Source: a virus
DNA length: 42,943 nucleotides
Direction: 5' to 3' (one strand)
IMG/VR virus record: IMGVR_UViG_3300015164_000003
Span: 1 to 42,943 of that record
This document shows positions 1 to 42,943 of this stretch, one piece after another. The first letter of the stretch is position 1. Each line of letters begins with the position of its first letter. The translations under genes were made by a program, and so were the position numbers. The notes below the pieces were generated by a model. That model worked only from the letters and a program-made list of their open reading frames with translations. It was not told the origin of the DNA and did no database searches.

Positions 1-202
1 CGGTGCCGCGGGCCCCGGCGGTGGCGGTGCCGCGGTCCCCGGCGGTGGCGGTGCCGCCGTCCCCGGCGGTGGCGGTGCCGCGGTCCCCGGCGGTGGCGGT
101 GCCGCTGTGCCCGGCGGTGGCGGTGCCGCCGTACCCGGCGGCGGCGGTGCCGCGGTGCCCGGCGGTGGCGGTGCCGCCGTACCCGGCGGTGGCGGTGCCG
201 CC
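1..202. repeat. 24-bp tandem repeat, left arm
   Basis: Head-to-tail 24-bp units run from the first base to about 202; they encode one octapeptide each on the minus strand. Units differ mainly at the codons for repeat positions 7 and 8 (TAC, CAC or GAC followed by GGC, CGC or AGC). The same array resumes at the right-hand window end. Such arrays expand and contract easily and stall short-read assembly, which explains why the molecule was opened here. Confidence 0.95.
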
Positions 203-29062: not shown

Positions 29063-29162
29063 CTCGGCGGACTCCTTTGTGCTCGCCCACCCATCGCGGG
29101 TGAGGACATCTGTGGGCGTGTCGTATCACGCGGTATCTATCACTTGCCCTATGGTGTCTATT
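29063..29162. promoter_or_regulatory. Upstream region of the plus-strand cassette
   Basis: No gene. The part around 29120-29162 is AT-richer than its surroundings and contains GTATCAC, GGTATCTATCAC and TTGCCC-TATGGT stretches. A rightward promoter is likely here since both the arrays and the two plus-strand genes follow, but no clean -35/-10 pair can be fixed. Confidence 0.3.
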
Positions 29163-29358
29163 GCACGGCACGGCGGGGCTAGGCGCGGCGTGGCGGGGCT
29201 TGGCATGGCCCGGCAGGGCAAGGCAACTCAGGGGCTTGAGGTAGGGCGGCTGGCAGTCATCGGGGTTCGAGACCTCGACGCCCACGCACGGCACGGCGGG
29301 GCGAGGCAGGGCGGGGCGTGGCATGGCTGGGCTCGGCACGGCAAGGCAACTCAGGGGC
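29163..29358 (+). repeat. Two 73-bp arrays of GGCNN pentamers
   Basis: Copy 1 (29163-29235) and copy 2 (29286-29358) have equal length. Each is a row of twelve GCNNG units followed by the same tail, GCAACTCAGGGGC. Variable dinucleotides in copy 1 are AC, AC, GG, TA, GC, GT, GG, TT, AT, CC, AG, AA; in copy 2 AC, AC, GG, GA, AG, GG, GT, AT, TG, TC, AC, AA. The copies agree at both ends and differ inside. The 50 bases between them are not pentameric. Period 5 is incompatible with codon selection, so this is unlikely to be a protein gene even though one frame stays open. The second array ends 20 bases before the first cassette gene. Confidence 0.88.
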
Positions 29359-29378: not shown

Positions 29379-29960
29379 ATGGACATCCGCATGACCTTCA
29401 CCGGCACAACACCGCTACTCATGCACAGCGACGTAACAGTGAACGCACTCAACCCGCTCACCAAGGCCATCAAGAAAGTGACGAGCAAAAAGACCGGCAA
29501 GACCGACGAGGACCACGAAGAAATCGCACGACTCGAACACCTCGCAGGGCTCTACTTCGCAGAAGGCATCGGCCCCTACATGCCCGGCCGGAACGTCGAA
29601 GCCTGCCTCATCAAAGCGGGCGGCATCACCCGCATGGGCACGAAACTCAAGCAGGCACTGTTCGTCTCTACCGACACCAACCCGCTGGCCTACACCGGAC
29701 CACGAGACATCAAAGCCCTGTGGGCAGACGAAAACTTCCGCTACATGTCATCCGTCAAGGTCGGCCAAGCCCGCACGATGCGCTGCCGCCCGCAGTTTCG
29801 CGAGTGGAAGTTCGAATGCGAGGCGATCCTCGACACCAGCGTGATTGACCTTGCCGACCTGACGGACATCGCCGACACGGCCGGGCAGCGGATCGGCCTC
29901 GGCGACTTCCGGCCCCGCTTCGGCCGGTTCACGGCCACCGTGGAGCAGGCCACAGGGTGA
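29379..29960 (+). CDS. Orphan RAMP/Cas7-like protein (candidate), first gene of cassette
   Basis: 193 residues, AAGGA before the ATG. The N-terminus MDIRMTFTGTTPLLMHSD resembles the first strand and loop of RAMP proteins (pattern TPLxxxS). The C-terminus RIGLGDFRPRFGRFTATVE resembles their glycine-rich loop (GxGxxRxxxFGR). Between are conserved-looking blocks YMPGRNVEACLIKAGG, TNPLAYTGPRDIKALW and CRPQFREWKFECEAI. No CRISPR or other Cas gene is near. I recall homologues in unrelated phages and prophages, annotated only as hypothetical. RNA binding is an inference from the fold resemblance and from the arrays just upstream. It lies on the strand opposite to all structural genes around it. Confidence 0.7.
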   Translation: MDIRMTFTGTTPLLMHSDVTVNALNPLTKAIKKVTSKKTGKTDEDHEEIARLEHLAGLYFAEGIGPYMPGRNVEACLIKAGGITRMGTKLKQALFVSTDTNPLAYTGPRDIKALWADENFRYMSSVKVGQARTMRCRPQFREWKFECEAILDTSVIDLADLTDIADTAGQRIGLGDFRPRFGRFTATVEQATG

Positions 29961-30493
29961 GCCCCTTCAACCCGATCGGCGATGTTGCCCGATGGCGCAC
30001 CCTCTACGCCCTACTCGTGACCGTTCCCACTGACGGGGTCCTCACCTACGAGGACATGGCCGGCGCCCTTGATCTCCACCCCGGCGACGATCGACACACC
30101 ATTCAGATGGCGGTACGCCGCGCGGCCAAGGAGCACGAGGCCAAGGACAAGCGCGCCATCGAGTCGGTGCCAAACGTCGGGTACAGGGTGGTGCAGGTGC
30201 AGGAACACCTGCGACTCGCACGGAGCCAGCAAAAGCGTGCCGGGAAAGCCCTCGTGCGGGGACACTCCAAGGTCGTCAATGTCGACTTCAACGACATGCC
30301 CGCCGAGATCCGTAAGTCATTCGAGACCGTCGCGCACGCCTTTGCGATGCAAATGGACTTCAACCGGCGGTTTGACGTACGTCAGAGGCGGCTTGAGGAC
30401 ACGCTATCCGCATTCACCGAACGGTCACAGCGCACCGAAAGCGAGGTAGCCGAGTTGCGGGAGCGGCTCGCGCGGCTTGAACAGTCAACGTAA
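29957..30493 (+). CDS. Winged-helix/coiled-coil partner, second gene of cassette
   Basis: 178 residues, with a GTG overlapping the previous stop as GTGA. Residues 10-80 (RWRTLYALLVTVPTDGVLTYEDMAGALDL, IQMAVRRAAKEHEAKDKRAIESVPNVGYRVV) read as a winged helix of OmpR-like topology. A linker follows, with KALVRGHSKVVNVDFNDMP. The end is a coiled coil (RQRRLEDTLSAFTERSQRTESEVAELRERLARLEQ). It probably binds nucleic acid and oligomerises. It is translationally coupled to the RAMP-like gene and converges on the portal gene with a gap of only five bases. Confidence 0.7.
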   Translation: MSPFNPIGDVARWRTLYALLVTVPTDGVLTYEDMAGALDLHPGDDRHTIQMAVRRAAKEHEAKDKRAIESVPNVGYRVVQVQEHLRLARSQQKRAGKALVRGHSKVVNVDFNDMPAEIRKSFETVAHAFAMQMDFNRRFDVRQRRLEDTLSAFTERSQRTESEVAELRERLARLEQST

Positions 30494-30498
30494 CCGCG

Positions 30499-31878
30499 CT
30501 ACGCGGCGGTGTCGTCCATCGGCATCGGCGCAGCCGGGGGCATCGGCGCCGGGGTGGCAGCGGCGAGCTTCAGAGCCGCAGCATCAGCCACGACACGCTG
30601 CGCCTGCATCCGCTCAATCTGCACCGGCGAATAACCCAAATCCTCCTGCGCCTGCTCCACACTGATCGCCCCGGCAGTCAGGAGCTTCACCGCAGCATCA
30701 GCCTTCTGCGCCACCGTCGGGGTCTCCGGGTCACGCCAGATCGTCTCCATCGACAGCGCAGCAGGATCAGCCACACCCCCATCACGAACGAGCATCGCCA
30801 AGCGCATCACGCGCTCCCACGAACCGCCGAACACGCGCTGCTTCCGCTTCACCGTCTGGATCAGGGACGCCTCAGACGCCCTGATCGCATCGGCGGAAGC
30901 CGGGTTGTCGCCCTTGTTCGCCACCGCCAGGTAGTGCGGCGGCAGACCGGACACCGCAGCGATGTTCGCGGCGAACATGCCGATCGCCTGGATGAAGTTC
31001 GCCAACGTCGCCTCGGTGAACTGTCCGAACTGCGTGGTAGGGGAGTCCGACGTCCACACCCGGTCAGCAGCCGCATCCGACCAGCGCTTACGGATCAGCT
31101 CACGACTGCGCTCGGCAGTGCCATCCTCCGCGCCAAGATCAACACCCACCGCCCAGCGGCGCGGCATCGCATGATATTCAGCGGCCACCATCAAATCGGT
31201 CGCTAGCTTATTGATCGCATCAGACATAGGGATGATGTCCGTCAGTTCAGACTCGCCAAGCGGACGGATCAGCCGCGGCCGGTTCACAAACGGCACCACC
31301 GGGACCTGACCGAACAGGTTTTCGATCGGCTCAGACCGAAGGCGCCACTCAGCCTGCGAAGCAGCACCGGAGTCAGACCAAAACCGTTCGATACGGGTCG
31401 GGGAGTAGACCGTCAGGAACTTCTCGTCGCCCTCCTTCCACTGCTTCGCAGCCTTCACGATGCGGCGGGTCGTCGGGTCGTACTGCACAGCCATCTGAGC
31501 GGCCGACTCGACCGTGATCCGCGGTGTCGACGGGTCCTCAGGGTCGGGCCACACCATCACGAACGACCGGCCATACAGCAGCGCATCTAGGTGGCACTGC
31601 TGCGACCACTCATCAAGATCATTGGCCTGCCAGATCCGCCAAATGTCGTCGTCGGCCTTCTCCGACGCCAGGCGGAAGCCCTCCACGTCGAGGCGCTCCT
31701 CGATCGCACCCAACACCAGCCGCGGCCAGTTGATGACCAGGCTCGTAAGCCGACTGCGGGCCTTGTCGTCCAGGTCGGGGTGCAAAAAGTTCAGCGGCTG
31801 CGCACCGCGGTAGATAGCATCGAGCTGAGGGATGGTCCGCAGGTCGTTCGTGCCGTTGTGCAGCGCATCGAAGTCCAC
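30499..31878 (-). CDS. Portal protein
   Basis: 459 residues of the SPP1 gp6-like type. LDAIYRGAQPLNFLHPD, LVINWPRLVLGAIEERLDVEGFRL, LDALLYGRSFVMVWPD, VPVVPFVNRPRL and SGLPPHYLAVANKGDNPASADAIRASEASL are the usual landmarks. The C-terminal 40 residues are Ala/Pro/Met-rich. It is downstream of the terminase as normal and forms the dodecameric DNA channel. Confidence 0.92.
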   Translation of the reverse strand: MDFDALHNGTNDLRTIPQLDAIYRGAQPLNFLHPDLDDKARSRLTSLVINWPRLVLGAIEERLDVEGFRLASEKADDDIWRIWQANDLDEWSQQCHLDALLYGRSFVMVWPDPEDPSTPRITVESAAQMAVQYDPTTRRIVKAAKQWKEGDEKFLTVYSPTRIERFWSDSGAASQAEWRLRSEPIENLFGQVPVVPFVNRPRLIRPLGESELTDIIPMSDAINKLATDLMVAAEYHAMPRRWAVGVDLGAEDGTAERSRELIRKRWSDAAADRVWTSDSPTTQFGQFTEATLANFIQAIGMFAANIAAVSGLPPHYLAVANKGDNPASADAIRASEASLIQTVKRKQRVFGGSWERVMRLAMLVRDGGVADPAALSMETIWRDPETPTVAQKADAAVKLLTAGAISVEQAQEDLGYSPVQIERMQAQRVVADAAALKLAAATPAPMPPAAPMPMDDTAA

Positions 31879-36917: not shown

Positions 36918-37744
36918 CCGCGGGCCTCCTGGTCGGCGAAGTGCTGGACGAGCGCGAGACCTTGCGTGACACCGGTCGTAGGTCGGCTGGTGGGTCGGGC
37001 TGGTCCTTCGTCGGCCCAGCACCCAGCGTTGAGCCAGGTCGACGGGTGCTTCGTGTACGCCGGATCTCGGGTTCGGTCGTCTCGGTAGCGGGCGGCCCCG
37101 GCGATGATCACCTGAGGCGTGGCCGACCTGACGGCTTTGACCCAGGCCTTCCTGGCGGCGTCCTTGCCGACGCGATGCGGGTACGTCTGCCAGAACTGAT
37201 CAAAGACGGCGACGAGGGGGCGGGTCCTCAACGCAGTTGAGGGAGAGGGTTTTAAGTTCTCCTCTGTTCCACTGCTCCCCTGTTCCACTGCTCCAGACGA
37301 TGGATCCTCGCGCAACCCTCGCGAGAGTTCATCGGATACGGGAGCCTCGGTTGCATCGTCGCAGGTCAGAGGGGGTGACGAGTTCTGGTCGGCCTGATCT
37401 GGGGTCGGGTAGCGCGGCAGGTTGGGCCGGTCGATCTTCTGGTGCACCTCCCAGTTGTTGATGCGCAGATATGGCTTCCCGTCGACCACGTAGCGGGTCA
37501 AAAAAGCGTGTTGCAACCCTCGCGAGAGTTCATCGAGGGTTCGCTGCACATGCGCGAGGGTGGCTATCGGGTCCTCTTCGAGGGGGTACAGCTCGGCCGC
37601 GATGAGCTTCGCTACGTCCCTGCCGACGCCGTTGTCGTCGACGTAGGACCAGAGTCCGATGAAGGTCAGCCGTGACTGCATGGACAGCCCGGCGATGGAC
37701 TCGCTCTTCCAAAACTCGGGCTTGATCGAGCGGATGCGGGCCAT
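36914..37744 (-). CDS. Replication initiation protein (DnaD/replisome-organiser-like)
   Basis: 276 residues. MARIRSIKPEFWKSESIAGLSMQSRLTFIGLWSYVDDNGVGRD and DGKPYLRINNWEVHQKIDRP form the winged-helix N-domain found in many phage initiators. An acidic linker follows. The C-terminal part (FDQFWQTYPHRVGKDAARKAWVKAV, YRDDRTRDPAYTKHPSTWLNAGCW) is a second typical block. It probably recruits the host helicase to the phage origin. Confidence 0.75.
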   Translation of the reverse strand: MARIRSIKPEFWKSESIAGLSMQSRLTFIGLWSYVDDNGVGRDVAKLIAAELYPLEEDPIATLAHVQRTLDELSRGLQHAFLTRYVVDGKPYLRINNWEVHQKIDRPNLPRYPTPDQADQNSSPPLTCDDATEAPVSDELSRGLREDPSSGAVEQGSSGTEENLKPSPSTALRTRPLVAVFDQFWQTYPHRVGKDAARKAWVKAVRSATPQVIIAGAARYRDDRTRDPAYTKHPSTWLNAGCWADEGPARPTSRPTTGVTQGLALVQHFADQEARG

Positions 37745-42667: not shown

Positions 42668-42943
42668 GTTGTTGCCGCCGGAATAATGCGGCCCTGCTCG
42701 TCGCAGCGGTAGGCGGTGCCTGGGGTGAGGCCGTTTTCGCCTATGTACCCGATGGTGACGCGGTAGCGATCGCGGGCATCGTCGTACCAGCGCAGCTCGA
42801 CGGTGCCGCGGTGCCCGGCGGTGGCGGTGCCGCCGTGCCCGGCGGTGGCGGTGCCGCGGTCCCCGGCGGTGGCGGTGCCGCGGTCCCCGGCGGTGGCGGT
42901 GCCGCGGTCCCCGGCGGTGGCGGTGCCGCGGTCCCCGGCGGTG
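42664..42943 (-). CDS. Octapeptide-repeat protein, C-terminal part (gene split by window ends)
   Basis: Open from the right-hand end in the frame that reads octapeptides TAGDRGTA and TAGHGGTA. After about six units the sequence leaves the repeat as VELRWYDDARDRYRVTIGYIGENGLTPG and ends IIPAATT. This continues the gene that starts at the left-hand end. The capping segment with Trp and Tyr residues is typical for this repeat family. Together the pieces give at least fourteen repeat units. Confidence 0.85.
   Translation of the reverse strand, partial: TAGDRGTATAGDRGTATAGDRGTATAGDRGTATAGHGGTATAGHRGTVELRWYDDARDRYRVTIGYIGENGLTPGTAYRCDEQGRIIPAATT
42803..42943. repeat. 24-bp tandem repeat, right arm
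   Basis: About six head-to-tail 24-bp units. The last four are identical to one another, unlike the more varied left arm, which indicates recent duplication or homogenisation. Confidence 0.95.

What the first reader, a model, noticed from the sequence alone, without database searches (positions are those of the whole stretch)
29379..30493. Opposite-strand two-gene cassette: orphan RAMP/Cas7-like protein plus winged-helix coiled-coil protein
Within an otherwise all-leftward head operon, two GTGA-coupled genes run rightward between scaffold and portal. The first has a TPLLMHS start and a GLGDFRPRFGRF end, reminiscent of RAMP strands and glycine-rich loop; the second is a winged helix with a coiled coil. 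No adaptation or other interference gene is nearby. Such a moron with its own array could be a phage-borne defence, counter-defence or superinfection-exclusion system. The RAMP relation is my inference from two motifs.
Basis: inference. Interest (0 to 1): 0.88.

Follow-up and report, generated by a model that had tools for sequence, protein, structure and literature searches.

The report
Phage VIPR RNA-guided DNA-silencing cassette
The two opposite-facing genes and the repeat stretch beside them form a phage-carried, CRISPR-related RNA-guided DNA-recognition system called VIPR, first described in a 2026 preprint, so this is a new actinobacterial-phage member of a very recently discovered kind, with an unusual tRNA-like element between its guide RNAs.

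Summary
Window 29379-29960 encodes a RAMP protein: its AlphaFold model (pLDDT 95.5) matches Csm3/Cas7 best (Z 11.1), and the family profile matches PDB 36pp, 'SUSP1 Vipr protein' (E 4e-72). The overlapping second gene is in the same PHROG (5926) as the partner gene of SUSP1-type phages. Upstream lie two arrays of exactly 12 GGCNN pentamers (29167-29226, 29290-29349). Such same-strand arrays accompany 97 of 98 homologues and are hypervariable. This is VIPR (Viral Interference Programmable Repeat; PMC13142463, April 2026): Vipr uses GGY/NN 'vrRNAs' to recognise DNA with a 1-nt-skip code and silence rival phages. I replicated the code with guides collected here (10 perfect 18/18 targets against 0 at other skips), and found a 22/22 target for a mycobacteriophage relative in a terminase gene, every skipped base a codon wobble position. 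The window's guides are separated by a tRNA-like acceptor/T-arm minihelix with strong covariation (25 loci), not mentioned in the preprint's main text. The window's own targets were not found. Verdict: new member of a known kind, with a possibly new guide-array architecture.

The parts
29167..29226 (+). vrRNA 1 repeat tract: 12 perfect GGCNN pentamers, NN = AC GG TA GC GT GG TT AT CC AG AA AA
   Evidence: absent from shuffles; same kind of tract in 97 of 98 homologous loci
29227..29235 (+). CTCAGGGGC following the repeats of guide 1, identical after guide 2; candidate start of the constant 3' tail
   Evidence: sequence
29236..29286 (+). tRNA-like minihelix: acceptor-like stem 29244-29248 / 29279-29283, T stem 29261-29265 / 29273-29277, T loop TTCGAGA 29266-29272
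   Evidence: covariance model hit 55.7 bits, E 8e-9 (the window element was among the 20 training sequences); covariation in 20 aligned elements
29290..29349 (+). vrRNA 2 repeat tract: 12 perfect GGCNN pentamers, NN = AC GG GA AG GG GT AT TG TC AC AA AA
29350..29358 (+). CTCAGGGGC after guide 2, leading into the vipr ribosome-binding region
   Evidence: sequence
29379..29960 (+). vipr: single-domain RAMP protein, 193 aa
   Evidence: profile match to PDB 36pp SUSP1 Vipr E 4.2e-72; phrog_4652; model pLDDT 95.5, best structural match Csm3/Cas7 Z 11.1
29957..30493 (+). vap (vipr accessory protein), 178 aa, phrog_5926 family, C-terminal coiled coil
   Evidence: phrog_5926 E 2.9e-7, the family of the partner genes in Felix-like, Pseudomonas, LittleE, MakoManhole and prophiBWHA-1 loci; alignment

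Best explanation
The cassette is a VIPR system. Shown here: the Vipr family and RAMP fold, the conserved linked vap gene, the GGY/NN arrays, their strand coupling and hypervariability, and a 1-nt-skip match between guides and natural targets in relatives. Inferred from PMC13142463: Vipr subunits assemble on each ~12-pentamer vrRNA and hold the GGY bases; the exposed NN pairs base-pair with double-stranded DNA as NN, skip one base, NN, and so on; the complex blocks transcription of the target gene in a competing phage or satellite, and vap strengthens the effect. In this phage two guides lie upstream of vipr, against the direction of the head genes, so the cassette is a self-contained moron used in conflict with other phages. 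The tRNA-like minihelix between the guides probably serves as the 3' tail of the first vrRNA and/or as a processing signal for host tRNA-processing enzymes (inference).
For: PDB 36pp Vipr match E 4.2e-72; fold match to Csm3/Cas7, Z 11.1 over 148 residues; GGYNN arrays on the gene strand in 97 of 98 homologous loci, 299 plus against 8 minus and in 31 of 33 further genome loci; hypervariable NN between phages with 100% identical vipr DNA, L105/L106; shared vap family; skip-1 code replicated: 10 perfect pairs against 0 for skips 0, 2, 3, 4 and 0 for shuffled order; LittleE guide with 22/22 match in terminase genes, skipped bases at wobble positions; system description and experiments in PMC13142463.
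Against: No target found for the window's own two guides. The two guides share their first two and last two NN, so only 8 NN differ. Expression, RNA binding and repression of this copy are untested. The winged helix of P0002 is not confirmed.
Confidence: 0.95

Rival explanations
1. TRAP-like sensor or attenuator: the protein wraps the GGCNN RNA in its own mRNA leader only to regulate its own expression, and the NN positions carry no information.
For: One array directly precedes the vipr ribosome-binding site in the window and in many relatives; TRAP also binds about 11 triplets spaced by 2-3 bases (own knowledge).
Against: Arrays also lie downstream of both genes in many loci; NN strings match natural targets only at skip 1; the fold is a Cas7-type RAMP, not a TRAP ring; PMC13142463 shows programmable DNA targeting.
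Confidence: 0.03
2. A divergent or remnant CRISPR-Cas effector (orphan Cas7/Cas5/Cas6) that uses crRNAs from a host CRISPR array.
For: Csm3/Cas7 fold.
Against: The gene carries its own non-CRISPR pentamer arrays in nearly all homologues; no PADLOC or NCBIfam Cas model matches the window protein at E up to 1; closest family is Vipr.
Confidence: 0.01
3. A structural or morphogenesis gene pair of the head operon that happens to be inverted.
For: Location between head genes only.
Against: Homologues sit beside tail genes, replication genes, integrases, and on plasmids and chromosomes, nearly always with the arrays.
Confidence: 0.005

Closest known systems
VIPR (Viral Interference Programmable Repeat), SUSP1 / type II; PMC13142463; Vipr structure PDB 36pp
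   Same: Vipr protein family; vap of the same PHROG; GGY/NN tracts of 9-16 repeats; hypervariable NN; phage-carried; skip-1 targets in relatives.
   Different: Actinobacterial phage; GGC almost throughout; two guides upstream of vipr; guides separated by a tRNA-like acceptor/T-arm minihelix instead of the pseudoknotted tail reported for the SUSP1 clade; vap longer by a C-terminal coiled coil.
Class 1 CRISPR effectors, Csm3/Cas7 backbone
   Same: RAMP fold; oligomeric binding along a guide RNA with periodically unpaired positions (by analogy).
   Different: No CRISPR array, no other cas genes, no adaptation module; 5-nt guide period with 3 constant and 2 pairing bases.
TIGR-Tas (PMC12045711; only its abstract was seen)
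   Same: Phage-carried RNA-guided DNA recognition with a tandem guide array.
   Different: Different protein family according to that abstract; different array grammar (own knowledge).
TRAP attenuation protein
   Same: Short triplets spaced by 2-3 variable bases, about 11 per site (own knowledge).
   Different: Unrelated fold; TRAP spacers carry no targeting information.

Membership tests
VIPR | Vipr protein (ancestral single-domain RAMP) | tested here: met
   PDB 36pp E 4.2e-72 by profile; Csm3/Cas7 fold
VIPR | vrRNA tracts of 9-16 alternating GGY/NN repeats next to vipr | tested here: met
   two tracts of 12 perfect GGCNN
VIPR | adjacent vap gene | tested here: met
   overlapping P0002, same PHROG as the partner in SUSP1-type phages
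VIPR | hypervariable NN with conserved GGY | tested here: met
   for the family; the window's two guides differ at 8 of 12 NN
VIPR | 1-nt-skip DNA targets | tested here: inconclusive
   met for relatives; no target found for the window's guides
VIPR | vrRNA expression, Vipr binding, transcriptional repression | not testable with these tools
   shown for SUSP1 and P. fulva in PMC13142463
VIPR type II | type assigned by Vipr phylogeny, vrRNA architecture and vap | tested here: inconclusive
CRISPR-Cas class 1 | CRISPR array and multi-gene cas operon | tested here: not met
   no CRISPR-type repeats near the genes; two-gene cassette between head genes
CRISPR-Cas class 1 | RAMP fold of the backbone subunit | tested here: met
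   Z 11.1 to Csm3

The most novel reading that the evidence does not exclude
In the actinobacterial VIPR lineage the guides are separated by tRNA mimics (acceptor stem plus T arm, without D and anticodon arms) that recruit the host's RNase P and/or RNase Z to cut the guide array into single vrRNAs: a natural counterpart of engineered tRNA-guide arrays, and an array architecture besides the hammerhead-interspersed and staggered ones.
Probability: 0.35. Interest if true: 0.62.

Novelty: new member of a known kind. Interest (0 to 1): 0.5.

Why it matters
VIPR is proposed as a relative of CRISPR RAMPs that predates CRISPR, and its characterised examples come from Escherichia and Pseudomonas elements. 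This member adds a compact actinobacterial-phage version with two perfect 12-repeat guides. The set assembled here confirms the noncontiguous guide code independently and extends it to a mycobacteriophage that targets the terminase nuclease region with wobble positions skipped. It also exposes a covarying tRNA-like separator, which suggests a testable way in which the guide array might be matured.

Tried and rejected
Pfam, PADLOC and NCBIfam gave no family for P0001. A TRAP-like ring binder with meaningless NN spacers was considered before the literature hit and rejected by the skip-1 matches. Exact 10-NN target patterns for both window guides found nothing in viral contigs, nor did a 9-NN pattern for guide 2 or up to 1 mismatch in 396 genomes of one phylum. 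Self-targeting: best 14 of 20, no better than background. One LittleE guide also found no target. The plain RNA fold of the minihelix is not exceptional in energy (z -0.56), so that claim rests on covariation and not on energy. Folding P0002 from its single sequence did not show the winged helix. Loci that seemed to lack arrays (L013, L015, L138) carry arrays with another core (TGANN, GCANN, GGANN) by eye; L136 is masked by N. The preprint's supplement could not be read, so the T-arm element may be described there.

Full report
Observation. The two ORFs are present as described: P0001 at 29379-29960 and P0002 at 29957-30493, both on the plus strand, overlapping in GTGA. The genes on both sides run leftward. 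The gene at 30499-31878 is a portal, with matches in 2,444 phage records, and 27625-28473 matches major capsid proteins of Streptomyces, Gordonia and Mycobacterium phages. The window is a 42,943-base virus record. P0001 belongs to phrog_4652 (E 5e-60) and P0002 weakly to phrog_5926.

The array. Upstream of P0001 are two tracts of exactly 12 perfect GGCNN pentamers, 29167-29226 and 29290-29349. In a set of 98 loci (phages, plasmids, viral contigs) chosen only by P0001 homology, 97 have such GGYNN tracts on the gene strand: 299 tracts on plus, 8 on minus, and 2 in mononucleotide shuffles of all loci. A few loci in that set are duplicates of the same contig. Typical tracts have 10-13 pentamers. 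Of 33 further genome loci, 31 have them too. L013, phage phiHSIC (L015) and L138 carry tracts with a different core, TGANN, GCANN and GGANN respectively, judged by eye.

Hypervariability. Among Felix-like phages the genes and the hairpins between tracts are nearly identical, but the NN dinucleotides differ wholesale and the number of units differs. L105 and L106 have identical vipr DNA and different arrays. A few units are shared between strains, and one is shared over half its length, as expected of modular exchange. A second group shows the same between 98%-identical genes (L084 against L087). Not every close pair differs: L050/L052 arrays differ at only a few bases and L108/L109 are identical.

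Identity. A profile of 81 homologues has one PDB match, 36pp 'SUSP1 Vipr protein' (E 4.2e-72). The literature search then found the preprint PMC13142463 (first posted 27 April 2026), read. It describes VIPR: a single-domain ancestral RAMP (Vipr), a vap gene, and vrRNAs of 9-16 GGY/NN repeats that recognise double-stranded DNA through NN pairs with one skipped base. The complex represses transcription and acts against competing phages and satellites. The array, its hypervariability and its strand bias had been worked out here before that hit; the guide code and the function come from the preprint.

Fold. The AlphaFold2 model of the window protein (81-sequence alignment, pLDDT 95.5) matches Csm3/Cas7 subunits best: 9g9f_D Z 11.1, rmsd 3.3, 148 residues; type VII complex subunit 8yhe_F Z 11.0.

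Independent test of the code. I took the NN strings of all tracts and compared them with all fetched loci, tracts masked, for different skip lengths. With 10 NN and 681 kb, skip 1 gave 2 matches of 20/20, 15 of 19/20 and 53 of 18/20, while skips 0, 2 and 3 gave none above 18/20 and at most 3 there. With 9 NN and 917 kb, skip 1 gave 36 array-target pairs (10 perfect), other skips 0-8 pairs (0 perfect), and shuffled NN order 7 (0 perfect). Most of these come from one group of related loci (L077-L095), so they are not all independent; several guides there fall in the vipr gene of rivals, for instance the L088 guide against L089 and L080. For the tRNA-like group I scanned viral contigs with two guides of mycobacteriophage LittleE. 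One gave nothing. The other gave three contigs in which 11 consecutive NN match, 22 of 22, counting the GA codon just before the 10-NN pattern (read from the sequences printed; the match marks of that printout are out of register). Two target versions differ only at skipped bases, and the skipped bases are the third codon positions of DVGLKRDTTAV. The target gene is a terminase large subunit (TerL_nuclease E 2.9e-17) in 16-17 kb and 5.6 kb contigs; L143 also carries portal, capsid and tape-measure genes. By my own rough estimate chance would give about 0.01 such matches for one guide. Whether these contigs are satellites or fragments is not known.

The accessory gene. P0002, the LittleE, MakoManhole and prophiBWHA-1 partners, the Pseudomonas partners and the Felix-like partner all match phrog_5926, so they form one vap family, most consistent with the vap1 of SUSP1. 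The assignment to type II is inference: the type definitions are in a supplement that could not be opened. The winged helix was not resolved. The alignment shows a shared N-terminal part with an invariant GY and a longer C-terminal coiled coil in the actinobacterial proteins.

A tRNA-like element. Between the two guides lies GGGCG-N12-CGGGG-TTCGAGA-CCTCG-A-CGCCC: an acceptor-like stem, a T stem and a T loop, without D or anticodon arms. Twenty such elements align with 95.5% of cells paired, compensatory changes in 9 of 10 pairs, and a covariation score of 0.616 against at most 0.242 for slid controls. The elements were picked with a stem requirement, so part of the pairing is by construction, above all in the T stem. 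A covariance model found 56 elements in 25 loci, all on the vipr strand, 44 of them between two pentamer tracts; strand and position were not part of the model. The preprint's main text mentions hammerhead-interspersed and staggered arrays but has no occurrence of 'tRNA'. Acceptor/T-arm minihelices are known minimal RNase P substrates (own knowledge), so a role in guide maturation is plausible but untested; the element could equally be the vrRNA's 3' tail.

What is not shown. No target was found for the window's two guides, and expression and repression by this copy are untested.

Verdict. The window holds a new member from an actinobacterial phage. Its possibly new part is the tRNA-like separator of the guides.

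Noticed in passing
window 1-201 and 42801-42943: Both ends of the record carry the same 24-bp tandem repeat (CGGTGCCGCGGTCCCCGGCGGTGG), which suggests a circular or terminally redundant genome cut inside a repeat.
   Followed up: no
L013 5144, L015 4576-4920, L138 3884: Homologues whose pentamer arrays have another constant core (TGANN, GCANN, GGANN), which suggests that Vipr's constant-base recognition varies.
   Followed up: partly
L088 array 4058; L077 array 4047: Guides that match, at skip 1, the vipr gene of other VIPR loci, so VIPR systems appear to target each other.
   Followed up: partly
L018 3587-3897 (Gordonia phage UmaThurman): About 60 pentamers in a nearly unbroken run downstream of a very distant vipr homologue (24% identity, E 6), annotated there as a protein-coding gene.
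   Followed up: no
L016 (Bradyrhizobium plasmid), L017 (Azospirillum plasmid): Vipr homologues with an array beside a metallophosphoesterase plus AAA ATPase (L016), or a DNA methyltransferase plus helicase (L017), reminiscent of the enzyme-associated VIPR types.
   Followed up: no
window 29143-29168; L051 2895-2915: The string TATGGTGTCTATTGCACGGC directly before the first guide is shared by the window and L051: a candidate promoter or start of the guide transcript, not found by the sigma-70 consensus scan.
   Followed up: no
window 37259-37294: A 16-bp unit CTCCCCTGTTCCACTG repeated 2.2 times.
   Followed up: no
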